The position numbers and the translations under genes were made by a program. From Baekduia soli (GTDB lineage: Bacteria; Actinomycetota; Thermoleophilia; Solirubrobacterales; Solirubrobacteraceae), in assembly GCF_007970665.1 (NCBI RefSeq), contig NZ_CP042430.1, forward strand, positions 310,001 through 374,000: a DNA stretch of 64,000 bases, given 5' to 3'. The notes under the pieces are model-generated. The model was not told the DNA's origin and did no database searches. It saw only the letters and a program-made list of their open reading frames with translations. Below, in pieces: positions 1 through 49,789 of this stretch. How positions within the stretch are numbered: position 1 is the first letter of the stretch; the number at the start of each line of letters is the position of its first letter.

Positions 1-12
1 CTCGGTCCTCAT

Positions 13-29
13 GGATCAGAATTTAGTCC
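13..29 (+). promoter_or_regulatory. Candidate GntR operator, site 1
   Basis: This is a 17-bp imperfect palindrome, GGATCA-N5-TAGTCC, with the same layout as sites found before hyuA1, puuD and hyuA2. It lies about 85 bp before the GTG chosen as start of the first GntR gene, which would fit autoregulation. It also argues against the ATG at position 11 as the true start, because that start would put the site inside the coding region. The assignment rests on pattern similarity only. Confidence 0.45.
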
Positions 30-112
30 AAAGCCCCATGATGTGGCAAGCGATTGGTCTTCTGGACTGCAAGACAGGCCACGCGAGGGAGTTCTCGGCG
101 TATCCTTGCCCG

Positions 113-817: not shown

Positions 818-2266
818 CTAGAGCGCCAGCGAGCGATCCTCCTCACCGACGATCCGCGTGCCGAGGTGAGCGGCGAGCACGGACGCCCGGCCGTGACCGC
901 CGGTACCGCTCGTGCCCCAGAACGACTGCGCGGAGCCGTCGGCGAGATCGAGCACGCGGACGCCCCCCAGCCGGACCTCACCGGCGTGCAGCCGCAGGCC
1001 GATGCCGAACGCCTCATCGGGATCGGAGGCGAAGACGTAGCCGGCAAGCCCGTCGTCGAGCGCGTTGGCCGCCTGCAGCGCCTCCTCCAGCCCGGCGTAG
1101 GGCGAGACGGCCAGCACTGGGCCGAAGATCTCCCCGCGGACCGCACCGGTCGGCAGTCCGGCGACGACGGTCGGCGAGAGGAAGAGCCCCTCGGGCGGAA
1201 GCTGATCGTGCGATCGCGCGACCTCGCCGATCTGGCCGAGGCGCTCCACGTCCTGAGCGACGCTGTCGCGGTGCGTCCTGTGCGCCAGGGGGCCGATGTC
1301 GGTGGAGTCCTCCAGCGCCGGCCCGATCCGACCGCGTCCCAGCTCGCCCAGGATCCGTGCGACCAACTCGTCGTGGTCGGCCCGGTGCACGAAGACGCGC
1401 CGCGGCGCCTCACACCACTGACCGTTGAGCACCAGTGCGCCGCGCGCGAGCTCTTCGGCCGCCTCCTGCAGGTCGGCACGCGGGGCGACGATCGCCGGGT
1501 TGCTGGCGCTGAGCTCGAGCTGGAGCGCGGCCATGCGGCCGATGGAGGCGGCGGCCACGGCACGGCCTCCGGCCGTGCCGCCGGTGTAGCTGATCATGCG
1601 GACCCGGCGGTCGGCGGCCAGCGCTGCGCCCACCTCGGCGCCCCCGCACACGACCTGGACCGCGCCCCACCCGAGCTCGGCCGCCTGCAGGGCCTCGACC
1701 AGCAGGCCGGTCGTAGCCGGGGCGTACTCGGAGGGCTTGAGGATCGCGGGACAGCCGGCGGCGATCGCGTAGGAGAGCTTCGTGGTCGCCAGGAACGCCG
1801 CCGCGTTCCAGGCCGCGTACAGCGCGGCCGGGCCCCACGGAAGCCGCAGCGCCTCGACGCGCCGCGGGCCGGCGTCGAGGCGGCGCCCCGCCACCACGGG
1901 CGGCGCGAGCTGCGCGACCCCGCGGGCGATGCCGCCGAGGCCCGCCGCAAACAGCCGGGACACGGCGATCGGGATGCCGGTCTCGCGCGCATGGAGGTGG
2001 GCGAAGTCGTCGGCACGCTCGTCGAGCGCGTCGCCCAGGCGCCGCAGCGCGGCAAGCCGGTCCCCGATGCCGCGCGTGCTGAACGCTCCGTCGCCATGAC
2101 CCCATGCCCGGTCGGCGGCATCCAGGGCTCGCTCGACATCGCCGGCGTGCGTGCTCCGCATCTCCCCGGCGGGGGTGCCGGTGCTCGGATCCTCCAGGCG
2201 CCCCAGCGTCAGCGCAGGCACCACCACCTCGCCGTCGATGAGGTTGAGCGCGCCGCGGTCGCTCAC
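818..2266 (-). CDS. NAD(P)-dependent aldehyde dehydrogenase
   Basis: Oxidises an aldehyde to the acid with NAD(P). The 482-aa product has the full ALDH layout: the catalytic Asn in AAWNAAAF (about 154), a cofactor-binding ILKPSEYAP segment, YTGGTAGG in the Rossmann part, the general-base Glu in LELSASNP (about 251) and the nucleophilic Cys in NGQWCEAP (about 285). The GTG start overlaps the stop of the upstream amino acid dehydrogenase (GTGA), so the two are probably translationally coupled. It is the last gene of the hyuA-hyuB-dehydrogenase-ALDH operon and likely oxidises a semialdehyde made in that pathway. The Ser-Ala-Ser after the catalytic Glu, where LELGGK is usual, places it outside the best-studied ALDH subgroups, so the substrate cannot be named. 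Confidence 0.88.
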   Translation of the reverse strand: MSDRGALNLIDGEVVVPALTLGRLEDPSTGTPAGEMRSTHAGDVERALDAADRAWGHGDGAFSTRGIGDRLAALRRLGDALDERADDFAHLHARETGIPIAVSRLFAAGLGGIARGVAQLAPPVVAGRRLDAGPRRVEALRLPWGPAALYAAWNAAAFLATTKLSYAIAAGCPAILKPSEYAPATTGLLVEALQAAELGWGAVQVVCGGAEVGAALAADRRVRMISYTGGTAGGRAVAAASIGRMAALQLELSASNPAIVAPRADLQEAAEELARGALVLNGQWCEAPRRVFVHRADHDELVARILGELGRGRIGPALEDSTDIGPLAHRTHRDSVAQDVERLGQIGEVARSHDQLPPEGLFLSPTVVAGLPTGAVRGEIFGPVLAVSPYAGLEEALQAANALDDGLAGYVFASDPDEAFGIGLRLHAGEVRLGGVRVLDLADGSAQSFWGTSGTGGHGRASVLAAHLGTRIVGEEDRSLAL

Positions 2267-3318
2267 GCGGCGGCGCCCAACAGCTGCTCCAGCCGGCGGG
2301 CGACGACGAGATCGGCCTGGGCGGCCGGCGGCAGACCGGAGGTGCGCGCGTCCGACAGCAGGTCGTCGCAGCGGGCGATCGCCGCCGTGACGCTGGCCTC
2401 CACCTTGTCGGGCGTCCATCCGAGGTACTCACCGCCCACCTGGATGATGCCGCCGCAGTTGGCAACGTAGTCGGGGACGTAGAGGACGCCGCGCTCGTGC
2501 AGGACATCCGCCAGGCCGGGGATCGTCAGCTGGTTGTTGGCCGCGCCGCAGACGACCCGCGCCCGGATCCGCCCGGCGACCGGCCGATCGATGACGCCCC
2601 CGACGGCGCACGGAGCCAGGAGGTCGAGCTTCATGTCCAGCAGCGCCGCGGGCGCCGCAACGGCGGCCTGCAGCTCGTCGGCCAGGCGCTCCGCCCGGCC
2701 GGCGGATGCGTCGGCCACGACGACGTCGGCGCCAAGGGCGTGCAGGCCGCGGGCGAGCGCGGCACCGACCTTCCCCACGCCCTGCACGCCGGCCCTGATC
2801 CCTTCCAGCGCGCCGGCCTCGCGGGGACGCCGGAGTGCCGACAGGCACGCGTGCAGGACGGTGCGGGCGGTCGTCGGCGACGGGTCGCCGCTTCCGCCGC
2901 TGGACGCCGGCCGCCCGACGACGTGGCGGGTGTGGCGCGCGATGACGTCCATGTCGGCCGGGCCGGTCCCGATGTCCTCCGCCCCGGCGTAGCGGCCGTC
3001 GAGCCGCCCGATCGCCTCGCCCAGCGCCGCGAGCTGACGCGGATCGGCCGGGTCGCCGCGGTCGATCATGACCGTCTTGCCGCCGCCCAGTGGCAGCCCC
3101 GCCATGACGTTCTTGGCCGTCATGGCCCGCGAGAGGCGAAGCACATCGATCAGCGCGTCCTCGACGGACCGGTAGTCCATGCGCCGGATGCCGCCCATGG
3201 CCGGTCCGGGGGCCGTGCAGTGGACGGCGATGATCGCCCGCAGCCCGGTCTGCGGATCGTGCACGAGCTCGACGACCTCGTGGTCGTCGAACGCGGCATC
3301 GATCGAGAGATCGCTCAA
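2263..3318 (-). CDS. Glu/Leu/Phe/Val dehydrogenase (leucine dehydrogenase type)
   Basis: NAD-dependent oxidative deaminase or reductive aminase for an amino acid, 351 aa, the usual size for leucine/phenylalanine dehydrogenases. The two active-site lysines lie in MTAKNVMAGL (K69) and GLPLGGGKTVMI (K81). AEDIGTGPADMD follows at about 114-123, and the Rossmann motif GVQGVGKVG lies at about 177-185. The start is a TTG that overlaps the hyuB stop (TTGA); any longer form reads through hyuB sequence and shows no homology. Position between hyuB and an aldehyde dehydrogenase suggests that it removes ammonia from the amino acid released by ring opening. Leucine is only the family label; the real substrate is not visible. 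Confidence 0.87.
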   Translation of the reverse strand: MSDLSIDAAFDDHEVVELVHDPQTGLRAIIAVHCTAPGPAMGGIRRMDYRSVEDALIDVLRLSRAMTAKNVMAGLPLGGGKTVMIDRGDPADPRQLAALGEAIGRLDGRYAGAEDIGTGPADMDVIARHTRHVVGRPASSGGSGDPSPTTARTVLHACLSALRRPREAGALEGIRAGVQGVGKVGAALARGLHALGADVVVADASAGRAERLADELQAAVAAPAALLDMKLDLLAPCAVGGVIDRPVAGRIRARVVCGAANNQLTIPGLADVLHERGVLYVPDYVANCGGIIQVGGEYLGWTPDKVEASVTAAIARCDDLLSDARTSGLPPAAQADLVVARRLEQLLGAAA

Positions 3319-5096
3319 GACGATCCGCGGGCCGTCTCGGTCGCGCCGGCATCGACGGCGAGCGTGTCGTCGCTGTCGCTGCCCGTGAAGCGCACGCCGT
3401 AGATCTCTTCGGCCGCGTGGCGCGAGACCCATCCCTCCACCACATCGTGCAGCACAGAAGCGGGATCGCGTCGCAGGGGGGACCCATAGCCGCCCCCGCC
3501 CGCGTCGATGCCGACGACGCGCTCACGTGGTCCGACCTCGCGCTGGCCGAGCGTCGGAAGCTCCTGCTCGACCCCGGTATCGAGGTCCAGCAGCGCGGCG
3601 TACGAAGGATGGCCGTCGAGGCCGCCGCGGACGCCCCGCGGCGGGTTCAGCCGCCCATCCGCGACGTAGGCCACCGTCATCGGGTCGTGCTTGGGGCCGT
3701 AGACGATGCGTGCGGGGGGCGCACCGCGGTGCTCACCCGCCCCGCCGCCGTCGGTGACGATGTTCAGGGACTCCACGTGGATCGGGTACTTCTGCTCATC
3801 GACCTCGACGGAGTCGCGGTACAGCAGGCCCGCGGCACACGGCAGCGCCCAGGTCAGCCATCCGTCGCACGTCGGCCCGGCGGGACCGCCGTTGCTGCCG
3901 ATGATCAGCTGGTTGACGTACGGCGCGCCGCCTCGCCGCCAATCCGCGCCGGAGACGACTCCCCATCCGATGCCCATCCCGTTCCCGCCCTCGGCGAGCC
4001 CCCACCCGTCGCCGATCTCGGCGAACGCCGACTGCGTGGCGTTGATCAACCGGTCGGCGACGTTCGTCGTCGCCATCGAGCAGCAGGTCGGATGCTCGGG
4101 GATGCCGACCACGCAGTTGGCACGGAGCAGCACGTCGATGCGCCGGAAGGTGCCCGCGTTGTGCGGGATGTCCGGATCGAGGACGTTGAAGAGCCCGGTC
4201 GTGACGTTGTTGATCGCCGTGGCCTCTGACTGGTTGAGCCCGGCCGGCACGCAGTCGATGTTGTCGCGCAGGTCGATCGTCGCGCGCTCGGCCTCGGCAT
4301 CGATCTCCACGATGACCTTCACCGGGATGCCGTCGGGCACCGCCGGGATCGGGTCGTGGGTTCCCGAGCCGATGTAGCGCCCGCTCGGCATCTGCGACAG
4401 CGCGTGGCGCATCCGGCGCTCGGAATAGTCGAACCACTCCTCCACGAACGCCTTGAGCACCTCGGACCCGTACTTGGCCGCCAGCTCCTTGAGCCGGCGC
4501 TCGGCGATCCGCGCCGAGCCGAGTGTGGCGAGGTAGTCGCCGTACCATTGATCGGGCACGCGGATGCGTCGCCGGCACATGCGGATGACATCCTCGATGT
4601 CGCGGTAGTCGGACTGCACCTTGACGCAGGGGAAGCTCAGCGCCCCCTCCTCGTAGATGTCGGCGGTGAACGGCATGTAGGTCGTGGGGAGGCTGTTGCC
4701 CGCGTCGGCCTGATGGGCCTTGGCCACCGCGGTGAACAGGTGCTCGCCGTCGACGAACACCGGCGCCAGGATCGTGTGATCGGCGTGGTGGGTGTTGCCG
4801 AGATACGGGTCGTTGTGGAGGTAGGCGTCGCCCTCGCGGTACTCGGGGTGCAGCTCCGTCATCGCCGCGGTCTGCAGGTGCGAGCCCGAGATGTGCACCG
4901 GCAGCCCCTCGGCCGCCGCCAGCAGCCGGTTGTCGCCCGTGACGATCGTGCACGAGAAATCGCGAGCCATGTTGAGCACGGCCGACCGGCCGCTGCGCAG
5001 CAGCGTGTTGGTCATCTCGCGCACGATGGCGTCGAACCGGTTCGACAGGACGGCCAGCAGGGCCGGGTCGAACGTCTCGGATGCTCGCGTCGACAT
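3315..5096 (-). CDS. hyuB: Hydantoinase B / oxoprolinase beta-type subunit (pair 1)
   Basis: Catalytic partner of HyuA in ATP-dependent ring-opening amidohydrolases (N-methylhydantoinase, 5-oxoprolinase, caprolactamase) and related carboxylases. The 593-aa length is normal for HyuB. Family landmarks are the start region FDPALLAVLSNRFDAIV, HISGSHLQTAA, GDAYLHNDPYLGNTHHADH and the glycine-rich C-terminal part ending in GGGGYGSPL. Its ATG directly abuts the stop of hyuA with no spacer, and its own stop overlaps the start of the amino acid dehydrogenase. Both overlaps indicate tight co-translation. Which ring is opened cannot be read from sequence. Aromatic ketone carboxylases share this fold, but the neighbouring genes favour a lactam or hydantoin. 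Confidence 0.9.
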   Translation of the reverse strand: MSTRASETFDPALLAVLSNRFDAIVREMTNTLLRSGRSAVLNMARDFSCTIVTGDNRLLAAAEGLPVHISGSHLQTAAMTELHPEYREGDAYLHNDPYLGNTHHADHTILAPVFVDGEHLFTAVAKAHQADAGNSLPTTYMPFTADIYEEGALSFPCVKVQSDYRDIEDVIRMCRRRIRVPDQWYGDYLATLGSARIAERRLKELAAKYGSEVLKAFVEEWFDYSERRMRHALSQMPSGRYIGSGTHDPIPAVPDGIPVKVIVEIDAEAERATIDLRDNIDCVPAGLNQSEATAINNVTTGLFNVLDPDIPHNAGTFRRIDVLLRANCVVGIPEHPTCCSMATTNVADRLINATQSAFAEIGDGWGLAEGGNGMGIGWGVVSGADWRRGGAPYVNQLIIGSNGGPAGPTCDGWLTWALPCAAGLLYRDSVEVDEQKYPIHVESLNIVTDGGGAGEHRGAPPARIVYGPKHDPMTVAYVADGRLNPPRGVRGGLDGHPSYAALLDLDTGVEQELPTLGQREVGPRERVVGIDAGGGGYGSPLRRDPASVLHDVVEGWVSRHAAEEIYGVRFTGSDSDDTLAVDAGATETARGSS

Positions 5097-7172
5097 CTAC
5101 GACACCTCCAGCAGGTAGTTCTTGGTGGCCGTCACCCTGGCCGTGGCCTCCGGGTAGACGACGATCGTCGTCGTCGGCTCCTCGATGACCGCCGGCCCGC
5201 GGATCACCGCGCCCGGTTGCAGCGACGGGCCGTCGAAGATCGCCGTCTCCAGCGCCCCATCCTTGAACAGCGCGCGCCGGGAGCCGCGCGCCGCGTCCGT
5301 CGCCTCGGCCGCGCCGGCGCCGGCGGCCTCGACCACTGGACGGTCGAGCGTCGCGGTGACCCGTGCTCTCCAGAAGAGCACCTCGACCGCCGAGTGCTCG
5401 TCACGGACGGCGAAGACGCGCTCGTGGGCATCGTGCATTCCCGCGACGAGGGCGTCGAGATCGGAGACGTCGTCGAACCGGCCCGACGGCAACGGCACCT
5501 CCAACTCCCACACCTGGTAGGCGTAGCGCGCCTCGGCGAAGTACTCACGGTGAAACGCGGTCATCCCGCGCTCGCGCAGGCCGTCCACGAAGCCGTCGAT
5601 GCGCCGGTCGAGCCCGGCGAGCACGGCGTTGACCCCGTCGAACGCGAACGACGAGCTCTCGGTGAACAGGCTCGCCGAGAACTCGGTGACCACGTCGGAG
5701 TACTGCGCCCCACACGCCGACAGCCCGCCGGCGGTCCGTGGGACGAGCACCTCGCGGCACCCGAGCTCGGCGACGATCGGGACGATGTTCAGGCCGCCGG
5801 CGCCGCCGCCGGCGACCACCAGGCTCTCCCGCGGGTCGACGCCTTCGTTGACCGTGATCTCCTGGATGGCCTGCACCATGTGCTCGTTGGCGATCGTCAG
5901 GACCGCCTGGACACAGTCCTCGACGTTCTGGCCAAGCCGCTCGGCGACGGGCTGCAGCGCCGCGCGCGCCGCCTCGACGTCGAGGTGCATCCGGCCGCCG
6001 AGGAAGTTGTCCGGGTTGAGGTAGCCGGCGATCAGCGCCGCATCGGTCACGGTCGGCTGCTTGCCGCCCCGGCCGTAGCATGCGGGCCCCGGCCGTGACC
6101 CGGCGCTGTGGGGTCCGACGCGCAGCAGCCCGCCGGGATCGACCCAGGCGATCGACCCGCCGCCGGCGCCGATGCTCCGGGCGTCCACCGATGACAGACC
6201 CGTCAGGTGACCGGTGAACTGCTTCCCGAGCCAGGTCTCGCGCGTGAACTTGATCTGTCCGTCGCGCACCAGGCTGACGTCGAAGCTCGTCCCGCCCGTG
6301 TCGCAGACGATGATGTTGTCGATCCGTCCCTCCGCGCCGCCATATGTACGGCCGGCCACGGGCGCCATCGCCGGCCCGGAGCGCACCGAGCAGATCGGAC
6401 GCTTCACCATGTCCTCGACGTGGGTCACCCCGCCGAACGATGTGGCGGCCAGCAGCTCGCCGCGGAAACCATTGGCCCGCAGGTCGGTCTCGAGACCGTT
6501 GAGATGACCCTGCATCAGCGGCTTGAGCGACGCGTCCAAGGCCGCCGACGAGGCACGCCGGTACTCCCGCACGATCGGGTTCAGCTCATGCGACAGCGTG
6601 AACGGAATCTCCGGGATCTCCTCGGCCATCAGCTCGCCGAGCCGGCGCTCGTGCACAGCGTTGGACGTCGACCACAGCAGGCAGACCGCCACGGCCTCGA
6701 CGTCGAGGCGCCCGAGACGACGCAGGACCTCACGTGCCTGAGTCTCGTCCAACGCAGTGACCACCTGACCCTCGGAGTCGACGCGCTCGTCGATCTCGAA
6801 CGTCAGGCGACGGGGGATGTAGGGCTCCGGGAAGGACGTCGCGAAATCGTAGGCATTGAACTTTCCGCCCTCGCGGAGTACCAGCGTGTCGGGAAAGCCC
6901 TTCGTCGTGAGAAACGCGGTGCGCGCAGTCCTGCCCTCGATCACGGCGTTCGTTGCTCGCGTAGTGGCGTAGATGAAGAGGTCGGTCTCGTTCAGGAGAC
7001 CGACCGCGTCGGTCCCGTAGCCGGAGCCCGTCACCTCAAGCGCCTCACGGATGCCGGAGAACACCCGGTCCTGATCTGTGAGCGCCTTGTTGACCGTCAG
7101 GACTCCAGCGTCATCGGCGACCACCACGTCCGTGAAAGTCCCGCCGGTGTCGACTGCGATTCTGAAGGACAT
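5097..7172 (-). CDS. hyuA: Hydantoinase A / oxoprolinase alpha-type subunit (pair 1)
   Basis: ATP-binding subunit that activates the cyclic amide by phosphorylation, 691 aa. The phosphate-binding motif DTGGTFTDVVV lies at about residues 8-18, the second phosphate motif CDTGGTSFDVSL near 300, and a conserved VVAGGGAGGLNIVPI follows near 465. The start is the ATG preceded by AGGAG at 5-nt spacing; an upstream in-frame codon adds 19 residues without homology. First gene of the hyuAB-dehydrogenase-ALDH operon. A sigma70-like promoter and two palindromic candidate GntR operators lie upstream. The subunit type is certain; the substrate is not. Confidence 0.92.
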   Translation of the reverse strand: MSFRIAVDTGGTFTDVVVADDAGVLTVNKALTDQDRVFSGIREALEVTGSGYGTDAVGLLNETDLFIYATTRATNAVIEGRTARTAFLTTKGFPDTLVLREGGKFNAYDFATSFPEPYIPRRLTFEIDERVDSEGQVVTALDETQAREVLRRLGRLDVEAVAVCLLWSTSNAVHERRLGELMAEEIPEIPFTLSHELNPIVREYRRASSAALDASLKPLMQGHLNGLETDLRANGFRGELLAATSFGGVTHVEDMVKRPICSVRSGPAMAPVAGRTYGGAEGRIDNIIVCDTGGTSFDVSLVRDGQIKFTRETWLGKQFTGHLTGLSSVDARSIGAGGGSIAWVDPGGLLRVGPHSAGSRPGPACYGRGGKQPTVTDAALIAGYLNPDNFLGGRMHLDVEAARAALQPVAERLGQNVEDCVQAVLTIANEHMVQAIQEITVNEGVDPRESLVVAGGGAGGLNIVPIVAELGCREVLVPRTAGGLSACGAQYSDVVTEFSASLFTESSSFAFDGVNAVLAGLDRRIDGFVDGLRERGMTAFHREYFAEARYAYQVWELEVPLPSGRFDDVSDLDALVAGMHDAHERVFAVRDEHSAVEVLFWRARVTATLDRPVVEAAGAGAAEATDAARGSRRALFKDGALETAIFDGPSLQPGAVIRGPAVIEEPTTTIVVYPEATARVTATKNYLLEVS

Positions 7173-7239
7173 GCACTCTCCTATGGAACTGACGACGCGG
7201 AACTCCGACCTGCAGGCCACTGGAGCCAATGGACTCTAT

Positions 7240-7256
7240 GGTCTAGAGCGTAGTCC
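7240..7256 (+). promoter_or_regulatory. Candidate GntR operator, site 2, over the hyuA1 -10 box
   Basis: GGTCTA-N5-TAGTCC is a 17-bp imperfect palindrome. Read on the minus strand it contains the proposed -10 hexamer TACGCT of the hyuA promoter, the classic place for a repressor. An outer perfect inverted repeat, ATGGACT (7229-7235) and AGTCCAT (7252-7258), overlaps it. Function is inferred from position and recurrence. Confidence 0.5.
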
Positions 7257-7276
7257 ATGCCGGCCGGCCCAGTCAA
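7247..7276 (-). promoter_or_regulatory. Putative sigma70-type promoter of hyuA1 operon
   Basis: On the minus strand a TTGACT -35 box (7276-7271) and a TACGCT -10 box (7252-7247) are separated by 18 bp. This predicts transcription from about 7240 and a leader of roughly 67 nt ending in AGGAGAGTGC before the hyuA ATG. The match is good for a high-GC genome but untested. Confidence 0.45.
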
Positions 7277-7331
7277 CGCCCCTTCCATGCTTCGCAGCAC
7301 TGATCAGAGATCGACACGATTCTGGACAATG

Positions 7332-7348
7332 GGTCTGATCAACATACC
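7332..7348 (+). promoter_or_regulatory. Candidate GntR operator, site 3
   Basis: GGTCTG-N5-CATACC lies upstream of the hyuA1 promoter. It matches the site before puuD at 14 of 17 positions. TGATCAGA at 7301-7308 and TCTGATCA at 7334-7341 form a further perfect 8-bp inverted repeat that overlaps it. Two sites about 92 bp apart could allow looping or a second promoter; this is inference. Confidence 0.5.
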
Positions 7349-7377
7349 TACTCAGCCGCTGTAATGGGGAAAGTTCT

Positions 7378-8094
7378 TCAACCGCGGCGCGAGCCGGAGG
7401 CCAGCGCATGGGCCGTCCCGCGCACGTGTTGCTCCATCGCCGTGGCGGCCGCGGCGGCGTCGGCATCCTTCAACCCCTGCACGATGCGCTCGTGCTCGGG
7501 GACCGTGCGCTCGCGCATCTGGTCGAGGTCCAGCGGCTGGAACGGCAGGAACAGCGCGGCCCGCGCCTCCTCGACGGCATGGCGCACGAGATCGGCGCCG
7601 GCCGCCTCGGCGATGCGCAGGTGGAACCGCAGGTCGGCCTGCCGGAACGCCCCGACCTCCGTCGTCGTCGCCATGCGCTCGTTGAGCGCCGACAGCTCGG
7701 CGATGAGCACGGTGTCGGCCCGGGCGGCGGCCCGCCGCGCGGCCAGGGGCTCCACTACCGCGCGGAACTCGAAGACTGCGTCCATCTCCGTGCCCTGCTC
7801 GGCGAACCAGGTGCGCAGCTCGGCGCCGGACATCGTGCGCTGCCGGACGAAGACGCCGCCCCCGGGCCCCCGGCGAATGTCCACGTAGCCGGCCCCCTTG
7901 AGCTCGCGCAGCGCCTCGCGCAGCGTCGCCCGTGAGACCCCGAGCTGCTCGGCGAGATCGCGCTCGGACGGCAGCTTGCAGCCGGGCGGGAACTCGCCGA
8001 GGTGTATTCCGCGCCGCAGGTACGCCACCACGACCTCGTACGCCGGGGCGATGTCGATCGGCCCGAGGCCGGCGATGGGTTCCAGGCTGGGCAC
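7378..8094 (-). CDS. GntR/FadR-family transcriptional regulator, second copy
   Basis: Winged-helix regulator of 238 aa with recognition helix region LGVSRATLREA and a C-terminal FCD domain. The metal-ligand pattern is the D and H of ADLRFH, the H of VPEHERI and the H of MEQHVR. The open frame runs much further upstream, but that part lies antisense-like within the aldehyde dehydrogenase gene. The GTG at the start of VPSLEPIAGL gives a product collinear with the paralog at the left end. It is the last gene of the puuD-to-aldehyde-dehydrogenase operon, 31 bp behind the latter, so the regulator is probably co-expressed with its targets. Its recognition helix resembles that of the other GntR protein, so both may bind the same palindromes. 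Confidence 0.88.
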   Translation of the reverse strand: MPSLEPIAGLGPIDIAPAYEVVVAYLRRGIHLGEFPPGCKLPSERDLAEQLGVSRATLREALRELKGAGYVDIRRGPGGGVFVRQRTMSGAELRTWFAEQGTEMDAVFEFRAVVEPLAARRAAARADTVLIAELSALNERMATTTEVGAFRQADLRFHLRIAEAAGADLVRHAVEEARAALFLPFQPLDLDQMRERTVPEHERIVQGLKDADAAAAATAMEQHVRGTAHALASGSRRG

Positions 8095-8125
8095 CGGGGT
8101 AGCGTAGAGGTCGCCCTCCCTTCGG

Positions 8126-9544: not shown

Positions 9545-9554
9545 CAGCTGCTCC

Positions 9555-11701: not shown

Positions 11702-11717
11702 GTTCTCCATCTCCTTG

Positions 11718-12986
11718 TCAGAGCCCGAAACGTGCCGGTGTGAAGGTCGAGAGCCAGGGGGCCGCGGCGTGCGCGTCCGGGTCGCACAGCACGAGGCGTG
11801 CCACATCGTCGCCGGTCGCCGGCGCGAGCGTCAGGCCCAGCATCCCGTGGCCGGCTGCGACGACGATGCCCGGCGTGCGCCTGAGGCGGCCGATGATCGG
11901 CAGGCCGTCGGGCGTGCAGGGCCTGAGCCCGCTCCAGGTCGGGGCGTGGTGGGCGCCCGGGGTTGGGGGCCGCCGCAGGTAGCGCCCGACCCGGGTGTAG
12001 ATCCCGGCGATGCGGCGCGGATCGACGGAGCGGCCGACGCCAGCGAAGTCGACGCCACCCACGACGCGGAGATCCGGCCCCATCGACGTCACGCCGAGCA
12101 CGTCCTCGTGGAGGATCATCGGCACCTGCACGGGCGCCGGCCAGTCATGGAGGTGCACGTGGTGGCCCTTGCCTGCCTCGATGGGAACGCGGACCCCGAG
12201 CAGACGCCCAAGGGCCGGCGTCTCGGCGCCGGCGGCGAGCACGACGTGATCGGCGACGAACGTGCCGGAGGTGGTGGCGACGCGGGTGGCAGCGCCGACC
12301 CCCAACCCGGTGACGGTCGTGCCGAGCTTGAAGTGGACACCCCGGTCGCGACAGGCGTCGGCAAGTGCTGGGGTGAGGCGCGCGGGAATGCACTGGTCGT
12401 CCTCGGCCCAGAGCACCGCGCCCGCGAGGTCCTCGCGCAGCTCCGGCTCGACCGCGGCCGCCGCCGCACCCTCCAGGACGCGAGGCTCGAAGCCCTGGGC
12501 GGCCAGGACCTCGGCCTCGTGACGCAGTCGCGCGAAGCCCGCCTCGGTGTTGCAGACGTTCATCACGCCGCTGTGACGCAGACCGATGTCGATGCCGGCG
12601 GCCGCGAGCGCAGCGAAGCGCATCCGGCTGGCGCGGGACTGGTCGCGCAGCGCCCGCAATCCGGACAGCAGATGCTGCTCGCCGCCGTGACGGACGGCGT
12701 GGACGGCAAACCGGACGAGCTGCGGGTCGAGCCGCAGCCGAACCGAGACCATGCCGTCCCGGCCCAGCAGCTGGCGCGGCAGCTCACGCAGGACGCGTGT
12801 CCCGGCGAGCGGGATGCAGTGGCTCGGCGTGATCAGCCCGCCCGATCCGGCAGCGGTGTCTTCGCCGAGCCGCTGCGAGCGCTCGATCACGGTCACCTGC
12901 ACGCCGCGCTCGGCCAGTGACCATGCGGCGCAGACGCCGACGGCTCCTGCGCCGATGACCAACACGTCGGGCCTCGCCGCGCTCAT
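11718..12986 (-). CDS. FAD-dependent amine/amino acid oxidoreductase (DadA/PuuB-like, DAO fold)
   Basis: Flavoprotein of 422 aa. The N-terminal dinucleotide motif VLVIGAGAVGVCAAW lies at about residues 9-23 with an acidic VIER at the end of the second strand. The C-terminal SGLRPCTPDGLPIIGR and AAGHGMLGLTLAPATG are hallmarks of the DAO family. No transmembrane segment is evident. The ATG overlaps the stop of the PuuD-like gene (ATGA). In Puu-type pathways this enzyme oxidises the gamma-glutamylated amine to an aldehyde. The local order (hydrolase, oxidoreductase, ligase, SDR, ALDH) fits that role. A D-amino acid dehydrogenase function is the main alternative. Confidence 0.87.
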   Translation of the reverse strand: MSAARPDVLVIGAGAVGVCAAWSLAERGVQVTVIERSQRLGEDTAAGSGGLITPSHCIPLAGTRVLRELPRQLLGRDGMVSVRLRLDPQLVRFAVHAVRHGGEQHLLSGLRALRDQSRASRMRFAALAAAGIDIGLRHSGVMNVCNTEAGFARLRHEAEVLAAQGFEPRVLEGAAAAAVEPELREDLAGAVLWAEDDQCIPARLTPALADACRDRGVHFKLGTTVTGLGVGAATRVATTSGTFVADHVVLAAGAETPALGRLLGVRVPIEAGKGHHVHLHDWPAPVQVPMILHEDVLGVTSMGPDLRVVGGVDFAGVGRSVDPRRIAGIYTRVGRYLRRPPTPGAHHAPTWSGLRPCTPDGLPIIGRLRRTPGIVVAAGHGMLGLTLAPATGDDVARLVLCDPDAHAAAPWLSTFTPARFGL

Positions 12987-13753
12987 CCCGCCGCCCCACG
13001 GTCACGTCGGCCGGAACGTTCGCGCGCCTGGACGACGAGCCACAGCAGGATGGGGTCGAGCCCATCATGGAACTCCGGGTGCCATTGCACGCCGACCGCG
13101 TCGTGGTCGAGCAGCTCGATCGCCTCGATCAGCCCGTCGTCGGACCGCGCGGCCACGCGGACGCCGGCTGCGGCCGTCGCGATGGCCTGGTGGTGGAGGC
13201 TATTCACCGACACCCGCGGACCGTAGAGCGCGTGCAGCACGCTGCCGTCGGCGATCGACACGTCGTGGACCCGCTGCGCCGCCGCACACCCGCGCTCATT
13301 GTGGCCGTCGCGGCGGTGGTCCTGCAGCGTGCCGCCCAAGGCGACGTTCAGGACCTCGTGGCCGCGACAGGTGCCGAGCACGGGAATGCCCCGGACGATG
13401 GCCGCGCGGGCGAGCGCGATGTCGAAGGCATCCTGCTCCGGATCCAGCAGAGTGGTCTCGGCCCCCACCTCCCCGCCGTAGAACGCCGGGTCGACGTCAA
13501 GCCCACCCGCCAGCACGACTCCATCCAGCCGCCCAGCCAGCACTTCGGGATCGGACTCGCGCGGCACGAACACGGCCAGTCCACCGGCCTCCGCGATAGC
13601 ACGGGCGTACGCAGTGAAGAACGCATCGACGCACAGGCCGCGAAGGGCGGGGACGTCGCCATTGTGGAGCGTCTCGGCTGGCCAGCGGCGGCCGGTGACA
13701 CCGACCATCGGCGCGCCGCACCTGACTGGCGGATCAGCGTTCGATTGGTTCAT
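12983..13753 (-). CDS. PuuD-like gamma-glutamyl-amide hydrolase (class I glutamine amidotransferase fold)
   Basis: Hydrolase of 256 aa that would cleave a gamma-glutamyl amide, releasing glutamate. The nucleophile elbow VLGTCRGHEVLNV carries Cys129, and QWHPEF supplies His225 and Glu227; GVVLAGGLDVDPAFYGG is typical of the Peptidase_C26 group. No Shine-Dalgarno sequence precedes the chosen ATG. The ATG lies 10 nt behind a TATGCT hexamer, so a leaderless or near-leaderless transcript is possible; an internal ATG at 13708 is an alternative start. It is the first gene of the six-gene operon that ends with gntR2, and a candidate GntR operator sits directly at its 5' end. Confidence 0.85.
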   Translation of the reverse strand: MNQSNADPPVRCGAPMVGVTGRRWPAETLHNGDVPALRGLCVDAFFTAYARAIAEAGGLAVFVPRESDPEVLAGRLDGVVLAGGLDVDPAFYGGEVGAETTLLDPEQDAFDIALARAAIVRGIPVLGTCRGHEVLNVALGGTLQDHRRDGHNERGCAAAQRVHDVSIADGSVLHALYGPRVSVNSLHHQAIATAAAGVRVAARSDDGLIEAIELLDHDAVGVQWHPEFHDGLDPILLWLVVQARERSGRRDRGAAG

Positions 13754-13754
13754 G

Positions 13755-13771
13755 GGTCTGAAAAGCATACC
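13755..13771 (+). promoter_or_regulatory. Candidate GntR operator, site 4, at the puuD-like start
   Basis: GGTCTG-N5-CATACC is an imperfect 17-bp palindrome immediately before the puuD-like ATG. On the minus strand it contains TATGCT, a plausible -10 hexamer. It is the closest match to site 3 before hyuA1 (14 of 17 identical). Binding here would block the promoter of the amine operon. Confidence 0.5.
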
Positions 13772-14305
13772 AGATCTGCGGCTGCCCGATGTCTGGATCT
13801 GCGGCTGCTGCGCACGATCTACGCCGCCCCGTTCGACCCCGGCTGACAAGGGCTTGTCCGGGGATGTCGCCCGTGAGTTCGCCCGGCCTGGCCGCCAAGC
13901 TCGCCGCCGCCCAACCCGCCGACGGCGACGCCGACGGCACGCTCGTCTTTAGCTCGGCTGCCGGTACCCGGATCGACCGCCATAAGCGCCGGCCCGGCGC
14001 CGACGCTGAGGATGTTCAACAGCACGGCCTTGGCAGCTAGCAGCAGTGCTATCGCGCGAAGGGTCGGCGGTCGACAGTTCGTAGCGGCCGGCCGATGGGA
14101 GATTGTTACGCAAGCGGCGGTACTGCCTGCGCTTGAGGTGATTTCATCGCGGCACTCGTCCAGGGCGCGCCGCTTCGCACCTGCGCTGTGTCACGGCGCG
14201 CGAGTTCATGTCCCGCAGCGCCGTCCAGTCCGAGAGGCGTGTCCTCTCACTGAGCCGGTGCCGCCCAGATGCGCAAGGGGTCCTGGTGGCGAGGCGCCTC
14301 GCCCT
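13772..14305. other. Gene-free stretch between the puuD-like gene and the amidase
   Basis: I see no intact gene here. It must hold the puuD-side promoter at its left end. A perfect 16-bp palindrome, GGCGAGGCGCCTCGCC (14288-14303), sits 2 bp beyond the amidase stop and could act as a terminator hairpin, although no T-run follows. A short segment resembling a tyrosine recombinase is listed separately. Confidence 0.5.
13864..13995 (+). pseudogene. Possible remnant of a tyrosine recombinase/integrase
   Basis: About 44 codons read SSPGLAAKLAAAQ, then GTLVFSSAAGTRIDRHKRR. This recalls the region before the catalytic box of phage-type integrases (LaaeLaa ... LVFpsa.GtpldrhnvrrR). No catalytic Arg-His-Tyr box follows and no gene continues in frame. 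It could mark an old insertion between two catabolic operons. The similarity is short and from memory, so this is a weak call. Confidence 0.25.
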
Positions 14306-15184
14306 TCAGAGCAACAGCGCCTGAAAGAACTCGGGGCGCCGGTCGGCCCACAGCGGCCAGGCCGCGCGGCTGTCTTCCAACGCTGCGGCTTGGAGCCGTG
14401 CCGTGACGACGTCCTCGGCGTCCGTGAAGGATTCGGCGAGCACGGTCCCGTGGGGATCGACGATGCGCGAGAGCCCCATGCGCTCCCACGTGCCGTAGCG
14501 GTCACCGAGCGTGTGCGAGCCGGCCCCGTTGCACATCACCACGAAGAGTCCGTTCTCGAAGGCCCGCATCACCGGCACCAACTCGAACATGCGCTGCTTG
14601 TTGGGCGCACCGATCCCACCCTTCGCACCGCCCTTCCATGCCGAGTTGATGCAGACGACGATCTCCGCGCCGAGGCGGCCGAGACAGCGCACGGACTCCG
14701 GGTGCCAGAGGTCGTAGCAGATGACCATCCCGATCCGACCCAGCGACGTGTCGAACACCTGGGGCTGCGTTCCGCCGCTGTAGTAGAGCTTCTCGAAGCC
14801 CGCGGCGTGCACCTTGCGGGTGGCGCCGACGATCCCACCGGGACCGACCAGCACCGCCGTGTTGAAGATCGCGCCCGGCACGTCGCCCCGCTCGGCGAGC
14901 CCGATGACCGCGTGGATGCCGTGCTTCCGCGTGGCCGCGGCGACGGCGGTCACCGCCGGGCCGTCGAGGGACTCGGCTACCTGCCATGCGTCACGGCGTC
15001 CAGCCGAGAGGTCGCCGGGCTCGCAGAAGAAGTTGGTCAGCCCCAATTCCGGAAACGCTGCCAGCTCCACGCCCTCGGCGGCGAGGTCGGCGACACGGGC
15101 GCACACATCGGCGACGTTGCGCTCCTTGTCCGCGGGGGGAAAGGGCTCGATCTGAACGGCCGCGGCGGTGACCGTGCCCTTCAT
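14306..15184 (-). CDS. Nitrilase-superfamily C-N hydrolase (N-carbamoylase/amidase type)
   Basis: Carbon-nitrogen hydrolase of 292 aa with the complete Glu-Lys-Cys triad: AAFPELGL (E46), ATRKVHAAGFE (K124) and GMVICYDLWHPE (C156). The superfamily includes N-carbamoyl amino acid hydrolase and beta-ureidopropionase, which act after hydantoin ring opening, as well as omega-amidases. The ATG overlaps the hyuB stop (ATGA), so it is the third and last gene of the hyuA2-hyuB2-amidase operon. It most likely hydrolyses the linear product of the HyuAB enzyme, for instance an N-carbamoyl compound. The fold is certain; the substrate is inferred from context. Confidence 0.9.
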   Translation of the reverse strand: MKGTVTAAAVQIEPFPPADKERNVADVCARVADLAAEGVELAAFPELGLTNFFCEPGDLSAGRRDAWQVAESLDGPAVTAVAAATRKHGIHAVIGLAERGDVPGAIFNTAVLVGPGGIVGATRKVHAAGFEKLYYSGGTQPQVFDTSLGRIGMVICYDLWHPESVRCLGRLGAEIVVCINSAWKGGAKGGIGAPNKQRMFELVPVMRAFENGLFVVMCNGAGSHTLGDRYGTWERMGLSRIVDPHGTVLAESFTDAEDVVTARLQAAALEDSRAAWPLWADRRPEFFQALLL

Positions 15185-16941
15185 CGCCCGCGCAACTCGC
15201 GGGTGCGGCTGTCGTCGACCACCGCGCCATCCAGGTCGAGCGCCACACCGTAGTGGGCCTCCGCCTCGGCGATGGTCACCACCTCGTCGAGTACGTCTCG
15301 CAACACACGCTGGGGATCGCGCTCGCGCGGATCGCCGTAGCCTGCCGAGTTCGCCGTTCGCAACGAGATGACGTCGCCCTGCGCGAGACGATAGTTGGTG
15401 GACTTGGCCGGAACACGCAGCTCGTCCTCGCGGCCCGGGTTGACGACGATCTCGCCGGGCACGCCGTCGTGTCCGCCGAACAGCCCGCGCGGCGGACTGA
15501 CCCCCGTTGCGCCGTCGCCTTCCCCGCTGAACAGCGTGTCGGTCAGGCATTCCCAGGTGCGAATGACGCCCATGCCGCCGCGCCACTGGCCCGCGCCCGG
15601 GCCGGGCCGCAACTCATACTGCAGGCAGCGCATGGGATTCCGCAGCTCGAGCTCCTCGATCGGGTTGTTGCGGGTGTTGCCCATCATGCAGTCCACGGCG
15701 TCCATGCCGTCCTTGCCTGAGCGACCTCCGTAGCTGGTCTCGTTGACCTCGATGTACACCCAGTACTCGTCACCACCCTCGACGACCCCTGAGTAGGACA
15801 CGAAGAACGTGTGGCCCGCGCTTCCGGCGCAGATGCGCTCCGGATAGACGTCGGCCATCGCCAGGTTCATCGAATCGGCCATCTTGGCGACCTGATTGAT
15901 GCGGGCGGTGCACGACGCAGGGAAGCGCGGGTTGAAGATGGAGCCCTCCGGTGCGACCACATCGATTGCGCGGAAGATGCCGCTGTTCTGGGGCGCCACG
16001 GTCGGGTGCGTGACCTCGTCGAGCATAATCGAGCGGATGATCGAGTAGGCGATCACCTGCGTCGAGCCCGAGAAGGGGCAGTTGAAGCCAGTCGAGACCT
16101 GGTCGTTGGACCCGGTCAGGTCAACCGCGATCTGGTCCCCGTCGACGCGGATCGCCAGCTCGACGCGGAGCGGCTCGCCAAGATGCTCGCCATCGTCGTC
16201 GAGCCATTGGGTGGGCGCTCGGTGAACGCCGTCCGGCGCCCGCGCGATCTCCCGACGGATGGTGCGCTCCGAGTAGTCCAGCCAGTAGTCGCCCGCGCCG
16301 AACACCGCCTCGTAGCCGTACTTGTCGATCAGCTCGAGGAAGCGGGCGCGACCCAGCCGGCTGGCCGCGATCATCGCCTCGGTGTCGCCACGATTCCATG
16401 TGGCTGTCCGCGTGTTGCGCCAGATGTGCTTCCACAGCTCGTCATTGCGGACGCCCCGGCTCTCCACGCGCAGCGCCGTGTAGTGATCGCCCTCGGCCCA
16501 CACGTCGATGGTGTGAACCATCAGGCCGGGCGACATGCCACCGAGATCGGCCACATGCCCGTTGGCGCAGGCCCATGCGCAATGCCGTCCTTCGTAGAAG
16601 ATCGGGATCGCGATGCACAGGTCCGGTGTGTGAGAGGCCCCCAGGTACGGATCGTTGTGCAGGAACACGTCGCCATCGTGGATGTCGTCTCCTACGACCG
16701 ACATGATGCCCTCGAGATAGCCCGGGATCGAGCCGACGTGCATGGGCGTCGTGTCGCTCTCGCAGAGCTCGGACCCGTCGGCGAAGAAGATGCCGCAGCC
16801 GAGATCCTCTGACTCGCGAATGATGCTCGAGTACGACATCCGGTAGAGCACCTGGGCCATCTGCTTGGCGATCGCCTTGAAGGCTCCGCCCAGGACGCTC
16901 AGCGTGATCGGATCAAGCTTGGTCTGAGGTGTCGTGCTCAT
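15181..16941 (-). CDS. hyuB: Hydantoinase B / oxoprolinase beta-type subunit (pair 2)
   Basis: HyuB-family subunit of 586 aa. It shares the family layout with the first copy: LDPITLSVLGGAFKAIAKQM, MHVGSIPGYLEGIM, GDVFLHNDPYLGASHTPD and a C-terminal NSAGYGDPRERDP. It lacks the glycine run and differs throughout, so it is not a recent duplicate. The ATG overlaps the stop of hyuA2 (ATGA), and its stop overlaps the amidase start. The open frame extends far upstream, but that part lies within hyuA2. Predicted to form an ATP-dependent cyclic-amidase complex with the neighbouring HyuA. Confidence 0.9.
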   Translation of the reverse strand: MSTTPQTKLDPITLSVLGGAFKAIAKQMAQVLYRMSYSSIIRESEDLGCGIFFADGSELCESDTTPMHVGSIPGYLEGIMSVVGDDIHDGDVFLHNDPYLGASHTPDLCIAIPIFYEGRHCAWACANGHVADLGGMSPGLMVHTIDVWAEGDHYTALRVESRGVRNDELWKHIWRNTRTATWNRGDTEAMIAASRLGRARFLELIDKYGYEAVFGAGDYWLDYSERTIRREIARAPDGVHRAPTQWLDDDGEHLGEPLRVELAIRVDGDQIAVDLTGSNDQVSTGFNCPFSGSTQVIAYSIIRSIMLDEVTHPTVAPQNSGIFRAIDVVAPEGSIFNPRFPASCTARINQVAKMADSMNLAMADVYPERICAGSAGHTFFVSYSGVVEGGDEYWVYIEVNETSYGGRSGKDGMDAVDCMMGNTRNNPIEELELRNPMRCLQYELRPGPGAGQWRGGMGVIRTWECLTDTLFSGEGDGATGVSPPRGLFGGHDGVPGEIVVNPGREDELRVPAKSTNYRLAQGDVISLRTANSAGYGDPRERDPQRVLRDVLDEVVTIAEAEAHYGVALDLDGAVVDDSRTRELRGR

Positions 16942-19022
16942 CGCGCGGGCTCCTGGATCGTGAGGACGATGTTTCCGATCTCGTCGATGCGCGCGCTGGC
17001 ACCTGGCGGGATCACGGTCGTCGAATCGGGTTGTTCGACGATCGCCGGGCCCGACAGCTCGTCCCCGGCGAACAGGCGCTCGCGGGCGTAGATCCGCGTC
17101 TGGACCCGCTGGCTCCCGTCGTCGGTGGCGAACACGACTGGCACCTCGGCGATCGGGGCGGGTCCATCGTTGCTGGTGGCTCCGCCAAGGACCGGCCAGT
17201 GCAGCTCCGGCATGCCCCCGGTCCCGGTGACTCGCACGGTGATGACGTGCACCGCGAGCTCGGCGAACCTGCCGAAATACTCCCGCTCGTGGCGCTCCTC
17301 GAACGCCTGGCGGGCAGCCGTCGCCCAGCCGACGTCGACGGCCGTCGACGGCACGGGAACGCGCAACTCGTAGCCCTGGCCCTCGTAACGACAATCCGCG
17401 GCGCGCTCGAGCAGGACGTCGCCGCCGGCGAACCCGGCATCCTCCATGTGCTCGGCGACGCGTACCTCCAGGTCGCGGTACACCGCCTCGAGGTCCGCCT
17501 CCTCGAGCCGGCTGAGATCCTGCCACGCACTGGCGGCCACCTCGTAGCGAACGTCGGACGCGAGGAGGCCCGCTGCCGCGGTGACCCCAGGGTGAGGTGG
17601 AACCACCACGTGCGGGATCCCGATCGTGCGGGCGATTTGCGCAGCGTGCAGTGGGCCTGCGCCGCCAGCGGCGACGAGGACGAACTCGCGCGGGTCATAC
17701 CCCTTGCGCACCGAGTTGGTCTCGATTGCGTTGACCATGTTGTGCACCGTGACCGCGATGACGCCCAGCGCCGCATCCTCCACCGACAGGCCCAAGGGAT
17801 CGGCGACGTGATCGGTCATGACGCGGCGCGCGCAGTCTGCGTCAAGGGGCATGCGCCCGCCCAGGAAGGCTCCCGGGCGCAGGCGGCCCAGCACGACGTT
17901 GGCGTCGGTCACCGTCGCGGCGGTCCCACCGCGTCCGTAGGCCGCCGGGCCGGGGTCGGCGCCCGCGCTCTCGGGGCCCACCTTGATGATCTGTCCCTCC
18001 TCGACCGTGGCGATCGAGCCACCGCCGGCGCCGATGGTCTCGATGTCGATCATGGGGACCATGACCGGGTAGTGGTCGATCGACGAGTCGAGCAGGTGCT
18101 TCATGCGGGCCTGGCCGGCGGGAGCCACGCAGATGTCGGCCGAGGTGCCGCCGACATCCAGCGTGATCGTGTTGGCGAACCCGCTGCGCCGCGCGGCGTC
18201 GATCCCGCCCAGCAGCCCTGCTGCCGGACCCGAGAGCACCAGATTGACCGGATATCTGCGCCCGTTCTCGAACGTCGTGATCCCACCCGAGGACTGCATC
18301 AGGTGCGGGTCACGGCGCAACCCCGCATCGCGGAGTTGCTCGAGCAGGCGATCCAGGTAGTGACCAACCCGCGGTCCGATGTACGCGTTGATCGCTGCCG
18401 TGGAGAACCGCTCGTACTCGCGGTGCTGGGGGCTGACGTCGCTCGAGACCGAGACGAAGGCGTCGGGCAGCACCTGGGCGGCAAGCGACCGGACGCGCTC
18501 TTCATGTTCAGCGTTGGCGAATGACCCCAGGAAGCAGATCGCGACCGACTCGATGCCCTCGTCCGCGAGGTAGCGGAGCTGAGTGGTCACGGCGTCTTCG
18601 TCCAGCGGCATGTGCACGGTCCCATCCACCAACATTCGCTCGGGCACGCAGCGGCGGTACTGGCGCAGGATCAGCGGTCGCACCTGCTGCGGGATGTCCT
18701 GCATGAGGCTGAACGTGTACGGCTTACGGTGGCGCGCGATATGCAGGATGTCGCGGAAGCCCTCGGTGGTGATCATCCCCACCTTGGCCCCGCGGCGTTC
18801 CAGGATCGTGTTGGTACCGACCGTGGTGCCATGCAGCAGCGCCGACAGCTCCGACGGCTCGGTGCCCGCGAGTGCGCAAACCTCCTGTACGCCCTGAAGG
18901 ATCGCCACGGACGGATCGGCCGGCGTCGACGCGAGCTTGTGTACGGTGATGCGCTCACCTGCCTCGTCGTACAGGATCAGGTCCGTGAAGGTGCCGCCGA
19001 CGTCCACGCCGAGTCTCCGCAT
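16938..19022 (-). CDS. hyuA: Hydantoinase A / oxoprolinase alpha-type subunit (pair 2)
   Basis: HyuA-family ATP-binding subunit of 694 aa. The phosphate motif VDVGGTFTDLILYD starts at about residue 6, LDVGGTSADICV lies near 285 and VLVAAGGAGPLHAAQIA near 450. The ATG before RRLGVDVGG is chosen because everything upstream lacks homology; the ribosome-binding site is weak. A perfect palindrome lies 2 bp before the ATG and may fold over the start. First gene of the operon hyuA2-hyuB2-amidase. A weaker copy of the GntR-type palindrome is found about 80 bp upstream. Confidence 0.92.
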   Translation of the reverse strand: MRRLGVDVGGTFTDLILYDEAGERITVHKLASTPADPSVAILQGVQEVCALAGTEPSELSALLHGTTVGTNTILERRGAKVGMITTEGFRDILHIARHRKPYTFSLMQDIPQQVRPLILRQYRRCVPERMLVDGTVHMPLDEDAVTTQLRYLADEGIESVAICFLGSFANAEHEERVRSLAAQVLPDAFVSVSSDVSPQHREYERFSTAAINAYIGPRVGHYLDRLLEQLRDAGLRRDPHLMQSSGGITTFENGRRYPVNLVLSGPAAGLLGGIDAARRSGFANTITLDVGGTSADICVAPAGQARMKHLLDSSIDHYPVMVPMIDIETIGAGGGSIATVEEGQIIKVGPESAGADPGPAAYGRGGTAATVTDANVVLGRLRPGAFLGGRMPLDADCARRVMTDHVADPLGLSVEDAALGVIAVTVHNMVNAIETNSVRKGYDPREFVLVAAGGAGPLHAAQIARTIGIPHVVVPPHPGVTAAAGLLASDVRYEVAASAWQDLSRLEEADLEAVYRDLEVRVAEHMEDAGFAGGDVLLERAADCRYEGQGYELRVPVPSTAVDVGWATAARQAFEERHEREYFGRFAELAVHVITVRVTGTGGMPELHWPVLGGATSNDGPAPIAEVPVVFATDDGSQRVQTRIYARERLFAGDELSGPAIVEQPDSTTVIPPGASARIDEIGNIVLTIQEPAR

Positions 19023-48973: not shown

Positions 48974-49005
48974 CGCAAACCCGTTCACGAGAAGGCAGGT
49001 TCCCC

Positions 49006-49785: not shown

Positions 49786-49789
49786 CCCG

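What the first reader, a model, noticed from the sequence alone, without database searches (positions are those of the whole stretch)
818..19022. Gamma-glutamylation pathway combined with two ATP-dependent lactam/hydantoin openers
Ligase (GS family), FAD oxidoreductase, aldehyde dehydrogenase and PuuD-like hydrolase match the four steps of the Puu pathway, yet they sit with two HyuAB pairs, an N-carbamoylase-like amidase and an amino acid dehydrogenase. GABA aminotransferase and a polyamine transporter are absent. The set suggests catabolism of a cyclic amide or N-heterocycle whose opened amine is glutamylated, or salvage of 5-oxoproline produced from gamma-glutamyl intermediates. I know of no described pathway with this exact set.
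Basis: inference. Interest (0 to 1): 0.6.

Follow-up and report, generated by a model that had tools for sequence, protein, structure and literature searches.

The report
Two gamma-glutamylation modules plus a lactam-opener
A soil-type actinobacterium carries a catabolic island in which two separate "tag the amine with glutamate, oxidise it, untag it" modules share a DNA control signal with an ATP-driven ring-opening enzyme and an amino-acid dehydrogenase, a combination not found described, while the second ring-opener next door looks like an unrelated neighbour.

Summary
The "Puu" half lacks the features that make Puu a putrescine pathway. It has the gene set of the Streptomyces GlnA4 (ethanolamine-type) cluster: GS-like ligase, SDR, aldehyde dehydrogenase, class-I amidotransferase, GntR regulator. 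There are two such modules: A (window 7378-13753), and B, which the window edge cuts (ALDH1, GntR1, then GATase', SDR' and GS' to the left). Relatives in other genera keep one or both modules. A GntR-type operator learnt only from relatives' module-B promoters recurs upstream of HyuA1 (7239-7257) and module A (13754-13772), but not upstream of HyuA2. In relative G132 it also precedes the operon holding HyuAB1, and it is missing upstream of 21 unlinked HyuA1-family genes. So HyuAB1-leucine-type dehydrogenase-ALDH1 probably belongs with the glutamylation modules. HyuAB2-amidase is best read as an independent neighbour, in a genome with about 33 HyuAB loci. Likely action: amino alcohol-type amines are glutamylated, oxidised, released as amino acids and deaminated. 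HyuAB1 either makes the amine from a cyclic amide or recycles 5-oxoproline; substrates are inferred. New variant of a known kind.

The parts
1..12 (-). First codons of GATase' (module B class-I amidotransferase, gamma-glutamyl hydrolase candidate); the gene runs left of the window to G000:C1:309221, followed by SDR' and GS' (to 307070)
   Evidence: 41% identical to the window GATase; GICRG and QWHPE motifs
12..30 (.). Operator-like 19-bp site TGGATCAGAATTTAGTCCA between GATase' and GntR1
   Evidence: Best hit (26.9) of a PWM trained on relatives only
113..811 (+). GntR1, FCD-type GntR regulator of module B (start moved from the ATG at 11)
   Evidence: GTG at 113 aligns with relatives' starts; 48-60% identical to GntR1 of G132, G090, G042, G141
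818..2266 (-). ALDH1, divergent aldehyde dehydrogenase (GQWCEA catalytic motif), module B
   Evidence: Pfam Aldedh 291 bits; kept beside GntR1 in G132, G042, G090
2263..3318 (-). AADH, leucine-dehydrogenase-type amino acid dehydrogenase
   Evidence: PDB leucine dehydrogenase 6acf 250 bits; also next to module B in G132 and G090
3315..5096 (-). HyuB1, metal-site subunit of an ATP-dependent lactam/hydantoin opener
   Evidence: Pfam Hydantoinase_B 409 bits; HNDPY motif
5097..7172 (-). HyuA1, ATP-binding subunit
   Evidence: Hydantoinase_A; CapA model 541 bits, below cut-off 1000
7239..7257 (.). Operator-like site TGGTCTAGAGCGTAGTCCA upstream of HyuA1 (about 66 bp before the start)
   Evidence: PWM 17.9; 1 of 2000 Markov shuffles reach it; rank 1 of 48 intergenic regions; absent upstream of 21 unlinked HyuA1-family genes
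7331..7349 (.). Second element upstream of HyuA1, 17/20 identical by eye to the element abutting the GATase start
   Evidence: PWM 9.7; alignment read by eye
7378..8094 (-). GntR2, FCD-type GntR regulator of module A
   Evidence: Pfam GntR + FCD; recognition helix nearly the same as GntR1
8126..9544 (-). ALDH2, aldehyde dehydrogenase
   Evidence: NCBIfam betaine-aldehyde DH-like 482 bits, below cut-off
9555..10340 (-).
   Evidence: Pfam adh_short_C2 230 bits; 69-76% identical in G042/G132 module A
10337..11710 (-). GS-like gamma-glutamyl ligase of module A, a divergent clade
   Evidence: Pfam Gln-synt_C; tree; close relatives only in G132 and G042
11718..12986 (-). FAD-dependent DAO-family oxidoreductase (DadA/ThiO-like)
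   Evidence: Pfam DAO 226 bits; NCBIfam DadA 203 bits, below cut-off 383
12983..13753 (-). GATase, Peptidase_C26/PuuD-like hydrolase
   Evidence: Pfam 180 bits; GTCRG, QWHPE
13754..13772 (.). Operator-like site directly abutting the GATase start codon
   Evidence: PWM 11.0; 7 of 1500 shuffles; rank 2 of 48 intergenic regions
14306..15184 (-). CN_hydrolase amidase (N-carbamoylase / half-amidase candidate); probably a separate operon
   Evidence: Pfam 153 bits; E-K-C triad motifs
15181..16941 (-). HyuB2; probably a separate operon
   Evidence: CapB model 242 bits, below cut-off; HNDPY
16938..19022 (-). HyuA2, N-methylhydantoinase-like; probably a separate operon
   Evidence: PDB 7hk5 N-methylhydantoinase 691 bits; no operator-like site upstream

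Best explanation
The region is a roughly 22-kb catabolic island made of two GlnA4-type gamma-glutamylation modules (A: GS, SDR, ALDH2, GATase, FAD oxidoreductase, GntR2; B: GS', SDR', ALDH1, GATase', GntR1) and a co-regulated operon HyuA1-HyuB1-AADH-ALDH1. In each module the ligase joins glutamate to an amine with ATP. The SDR and ALDH oxidise the protected compound from alcohol to acid, the amidotransferase-fold hydrolase releases glutamate and an amino acid, and the released amino acid is deaminated by the leucine-type dehydrogenase (module B) or possibly by the DadA-like flavoprotein (module A). HyuAB1 opens a cyclic amide with ATP, either to supply the amine/amino acid or to return 5-oxoproline to glutamate. 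HyuAB2 with the CN_hydrolase amidase is an adjacent, separately controlled imide/hydantoin-opening operon. Shown by computation: the genes, intact motifs, conserved modules and shared operator-like motif. Inferred: every substrate, the order of steps and the binding of the motif by GntR1/GntR2.
For: Modules A and/or B are conserved in G132, G042, G090 and G141. AADH adjoins module B in G132 and G090, next to 2-oxo-acid dehydrogenase E1/E2 genes in G090. A PWM from relatives' sites ranks first the module B promoter, second the HyuA1 promoter and fourth the module A promoter in 84 kb of G000, and nothing at HyuA2; in G132 two sites precede the LivABC-HyuA1-HyuB1 operon. Negative controls: 21 unlinked HyuA1-family genes score 8.9 or less and module C promoters 3.5 or less. 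HyuA1-HyuB1-AADH-ALDH1 abut or overlap. GntR1 and GntR2 share nearly the same recognition helix.
Against: HyuA1 of G000 and G132 are not sisters in the tree, and most HyuA1 orthologs sit away from glutamylation genes. In G090 the nearby HyuA1-like gene lacks the operator. The operator was found by comparison, not by binding data, and its first definition drew on looking at these promoters; sites in a 70% G+C genome are easy to over-read. No activity data exist for any of these proteins. The ligases lie outside the GlnA4 clade, so ethanolamine itself is not indicated. The roles of the FAD enzyme and HyuAB1 are guesses.
Confidence: 0.55

Rival explanations
1. Puu-type polyamine pathway with accessory lactam openers: ligase, FAD oxidase, ALDH and PuuD-like hydrolase degrade putrescine or a diamine.
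For: Same four enzyme superfamilies; PuuD family similarity (98 bits; PDB PuuD 6vtv).
Against: Ligase far below the gamma-glutamylputrescine synthetase cut-off (152 vs 650 bits); an SDR in every module; FAD enzyme DadA/ThiO-like, with no PuuB model in the rows shown; FAD gene absent from G042 module A; no GABA aminotransferase or polyamine transporter recognised in the island.
Confidence: 0.1
2. All genes including HyuAB2 and the amidase form one pathway for one N-heterocycle: ring opening, decarbamoylation, glutamylation, oxidation, release.
For: Proximity on one strand; HyuB2 overlaps the amidase gene; two HyuAB pairs in 22 kb has a Poisson P of about 0.009 given about 33 loci (my calculation).
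Against: 550-bp gap, no operator before HyuA2, HyuA2 relatives embedded with CoA-transferase/MaoC/CitE-like/amidase genes and no ligase, amidase without close relatives, G132 island lacks HyuAB2 on its contig (that contig ends inside HyuB1).
Confidence: 0.12
3. Modules and HyuAB pairs are mere neighbours collected by chance or by transfer; the shared 19-bp motif is a promoter feature of no regulatory meaning.
For: About 33 HyuAB loci in this genome; IS3-type transposase about 1.3 kb beyond the left end; orthologs mostly apart; motif may overlap -10 regions.
Against: AADH-module B and HyuAB1-operator links recur in other genera with different gene order; unlinked HyuA1 genes and module C promoters lack the motif.
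Confidence: 0.23

Closest known systems
GlnA4 ethanolamine gamma-glutamylation cluster of Streptomyces (SCO1610-SCO1615; PMC6529630)
   Same: GS-like ligase, short-chain dehydrogenase, aldehyde dehydrogenase, pathway regulator, glutamine amidotransferase
   Different: Modules A and B are separate ligase clades, two copies side by side, no permease in the G000 island, extra FAD oxidoreductase, HyuAB1 and AADH; the operator motif is absent from the promoters of the GlnA4-type modules tested
Isopropylamine (Ipu) pathway, IpuC/IpuF (PMC6776027)
   Same: Glutamylation, oxidation to a gamma-glutamyl amino alcohol, amidotransferase-fold hydrolase, further oxidation to an amino acid
   Different: Uses cytochrome P450; no P450 gene was recognised in this island; no HyuAB
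Puu putrescine pathway
   Same: Ligase, ALDH, PuuD-family hydrolase and a DAO-superfamily flavoprotein
   Different: SDR present, flavoprotein closer to DadA/ThiO models, ligase below the PuuA-type cut-off
Caprolactamase CapAB and N-methylhydantoinase
   Same: Same ATP-dependent HyuAB family, motifs intact (PMC8453981)
   Different: Scores about half of the caprolactamase cut-off; substrate unknown
NmpABCF N-methylpyrrolidone pathway (listed in PMC6987047)
   Same: HyuAB pair with a FAD amino acid oxidase and an aldehyde dehydrogenase
   Different: No gamma-glutamylation genes listed there

Membership tests
GlnA4-type gamma-glutamylation module | Ligase + SDR + ALDH + amidotransferase + GntR regulator in one cluster | tested here: met
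   Module A and module B gene content against the cluster in PMC6529630
GlnA4-type gamma-glutamylation module | Ligase falls in the GlnA4 clade | tested here: not met
   Tree: GlnA4-cluster and module C ligases form one clade (99/99); module B is a separate related clade, module A a distant clade
GlnA4-type gamma-glutamylation module | Ligase glutamylates ethanolamine | not testable with these tools
   Needs enzyme assay
Puu putrescine pathway | Ligase is a gamma-glutamylputrescine synthetase | tested here: not met
   NF045547: 152 bits (GS) and 211 bits (GS') vs cut-off 650
Puu putrescine pathway | PuuB-type flavoprotein oxidase | tested here: inconclusive
   DAO family; best models DadA and ThiO, below cut-offs; only the best 25 of 78 rows were shown
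Puu putrescine pathway | PuuD gamma-glutamyl-GABA hydrolase | tested here: not met
   NF008471 98 bits vs cut-off 266; same Pfam family
Caprolactamase (CapAB) | Equivalog score | tested here: not met
   CapA model 541 (HyuA1) and 591 (HyuA2) bits vs 1000
HyuAB ATP-dependent amidohydrolase family | ATP motifs in A, metal motifs in B | tested here: met
   residues as in PMC8453981
5-oxoprolinase | Converts 5-oxoproline to glutamate | not testable with these tools
   Only circumstantial: no PxpA in G000 or G132
N-carbamoylase (CN_hydrolase type) | Glu-Lys-Cys triad and N-carbamoyl amino acid specificity | tested here: inconclusive
   Triad motifs present; specificity not testable; best model N-carbamoylputrescine amidase 105 bits vs cut-off 410

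The most novel reading that the evidence does not exclude
HyuAB1 is a dedicated ATP-dependent 5-oxoprolinase of a gamma-glutamylation pathway: it returns glutamate lost by cyclisation of gamma-glutamyl intermediates, and it is recruited by the modules' own regulators in genomes that lack the usual PxpABC enzyme.
Probability: 0.22. Interest if true: 0.6.

Novelty: new variant of a known kind. Interest (0 to 1): 0.47.

Why it matters
Gamma-glutamylation is becoming recognised as a general way to make amines safe for oxidation. This locus suggests that such modules can be duplicated, diversified and wired to ATP-dependent lactam openers and amino acid dehydrogenases by a shared operator, and it offers a testable regulon for assigning substrates to several orphan enzyme families (a divergent ligase clade, an odd ALDH, a HyuAB subfamily). 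It also gives a concrete test of whether glutamylation pathways need their own 5-oxoproline recycling.

Tried and rejected
Puu identity of the module: rejected on HMM scores and gene content. HyuAB2-amidase as part of the same pathway: not supported. G000 and G132 HyuA1 as sister genes: not recovered. Shared exact k-mers among the island's promoters: only chance-level 8-mers; the operator appeared only after comparing relatives. The scan of GTDB genome contigs with a three-sequence profile found only three relatives of the module A ligase; it is pattern-limited and may miss some. Literature searches found no paper joining HyuAB to gamma-glutamylation genes, within open-access full texts only.
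Full report
What is there. The window is G000:C1:310001-374000. On the minus strand it carries ALDH1, AADH, HyuB1, HyuA1, GntR2, ALDH2, SDR, a GS-like ligase, a FAD oxidoreductase, a PuuD-like GATase, a CN_hydrolase amidase, HyuB2 and HyuA2, with GntR1 on the plus strand (families). Catalytic motifs are intact.

The glutamylation half is not Puu. Ligase, SDR, ALDH, regulator and amidotransferase form the gene set published for the Streptomyces coelicolor GlnA4 ethanolamine cluster, which also holds a permease in other Streptomyces (PMC6529630). The ligases of modules A and B are not in the GlnA4 clade: a maximum-likelihood tree puts the GlnA4-cluster and module C ligases together (99/99), module B as a separate related clade and module A as a very divergent clade. 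The gamma-glutamylputrescine synthetase model scores 152 and 211 bits against a cut-off of 650.

Conservation. Module A occurs in G132 (the MAG Solirubrobacterales bacterium 70-9, from matching contig length and coordinates) and G042 (Conexibacter arvalis DSM 23288, likewise). Module B occurs in G132, G042, G090 and G141. In G132, a member of another family, modules A and B, AADH, a Liv-type ABC transporter, HyuA1 and HyuB1 lie on one 32-kb contig in an order different from G000. AADH also adjoins module B in G090, next to E1/E2 2-oxo-acid dehydrogenase genes. AADH is leucine-dehydrogenase-like with the GGGK and TAKN lysine motifs, so a released alpha-amino acid is a reasonable product of module B. 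This would follow if the glutamylated amine were a 2-amino alcohol; that is inference.

Do the HyuAB pairs belong? By neighbourhood alone the answer would be doubtful. Of the HyuA1 orthologs examined, almost none but the G132 gene sits with glutamylation genes; the HyuA1 of G000 and G132 are not sister genes; and this genome has about 33 HyuA and 33 HyuB loci after merging fragments, against 1 to 5 HyuB matches in six congeners. The stronger evidence is regulatory. A 19-bp inverted repeat of the form TGGWYT-N7-ARWCCA occurs at module B promoters of G090, G141, G132 and G042, in G090 and G132 directly abutting the GATase' start codon. A weight matrix trained only on sites of relatives finds in 84 kb of G000 the module B promoter first (26.9), the HyuA1 promoter second (17.9; reached by 1 of 2000 Markov shuffles of that region; first of 48 intergenic regions) and the module A promoter fourth (11.0; 7 of 1500 shuffles; second of 48 intergenic regions), while the HyuA2 upstream region scores -0.7. 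In G132 two further sites (18.5 and 16.1) lie between AADH and the LivABC-HyuA1-HyuB1 operon. As controls, 21 HyuA1-family genes not linked by operator to module B score at most 8.9 in 400 bp upstream, and module C promoters at most 3.5. GntR1 and GntR2 have nearly the same recognition helix, unlike the module C regulators. A second shared element upstream of GATase and HyuA1 was seen by eye and not tested.

HyuAB2 and the amidase. HyuA2 is close to a solved N-methylhydantoinase (691 bits). Its relatives at 48-52% identity, including a G000 paralog at 2.75 Mb, sit with CoA-transferase, MaoC-like, citrate-lyase-like, acyl-CoA dehydrogenase and amidase-looking genes (named from sequence by eye, not by HMM) and not with a ligase. 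No operator precedes it. The amidase has no close relative in the 14 genomes searched. I treat this operon as an independent neighbour, either hydantoin to N-carbamoyl amino acid to amino acid, or cyclic imide to half-amide to dicarboxylate.

Role of HyuAB1. Two readings remain: opening a cyclic amide to supply the amine or amino acid, or returning 5-oxoproline to glutamate. For the second, G000 and G132 lack PxpA while G042 and G090 have it; but three congeners without the island also lack PxpA, G132 is an incomplete genome, and four genomes are few. CapA/CapB models are about half of their cut-offs or less, so the substrate cannot be read from sequence.

Limits. No experiment exists; the operator is computational, and its first definition came from inspecting these promoters before the relatives-only matrix was built. 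The literature search covered open-access papers only.

Noticed in passing
G000 whole genome (window is G000:C1:310001-374000): About 33 HyuA and 33 HyuB loci (39 and 38 matches including fragments), several broken, against 1-5 HyuB matches in six same-genus genomes and 9-15 in G042, G090 and G132: a lineage-specific expansion of ATP-dependent lactam/hydantoin openers.
   Followed up: partly
L123, L124, L125, L126: HyuA2-type HyuAB pairs embedded with CoA-transferase, MaoC-like, citrate-lyase-like, MmgE/PrpD-like, acyl-CoA dehydrogenase and amidase-like genes in several actinobacteria, suggesting an imide/half-amide/dicarboxylate route (functions named by eye).
   Followed up: partly
L037 (G089) and L038 (G013): Another GS-like ligase beside acetophenone-carboxylase-like HyuAB genes, with a small thioesterase-fold protein in L037 and a BKACE enzyme and GATase in L038: a second, different pairing of a GS-like ligase with the HyuAB superfamily.
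   Followed up: partly
window 40421-52280: Cluster that looks like acyl-CoA synthetases, enoyl-CoA hydratases, a biotin-dependent acyl-CoA carboxylase and an HMG-CoA-lyase-like gene (leucine or terpenoid-type catabolism, by eye).
   Followed up: no
L031:14549-15726 (G000:C1:304549-305726): IS3-type transposase genes about 1.3 kb beyond the left end of the island.
   Followed up: no
L033 (G042) 2967-15214: Next to module A in G042: genes resembling ectoine/opine utilisation (M24 and M20 peptidases, desuccinylase-like, racemase-like, FAD subunits, polyamine-type ABC transporter), named by eye.
   Followed up: no
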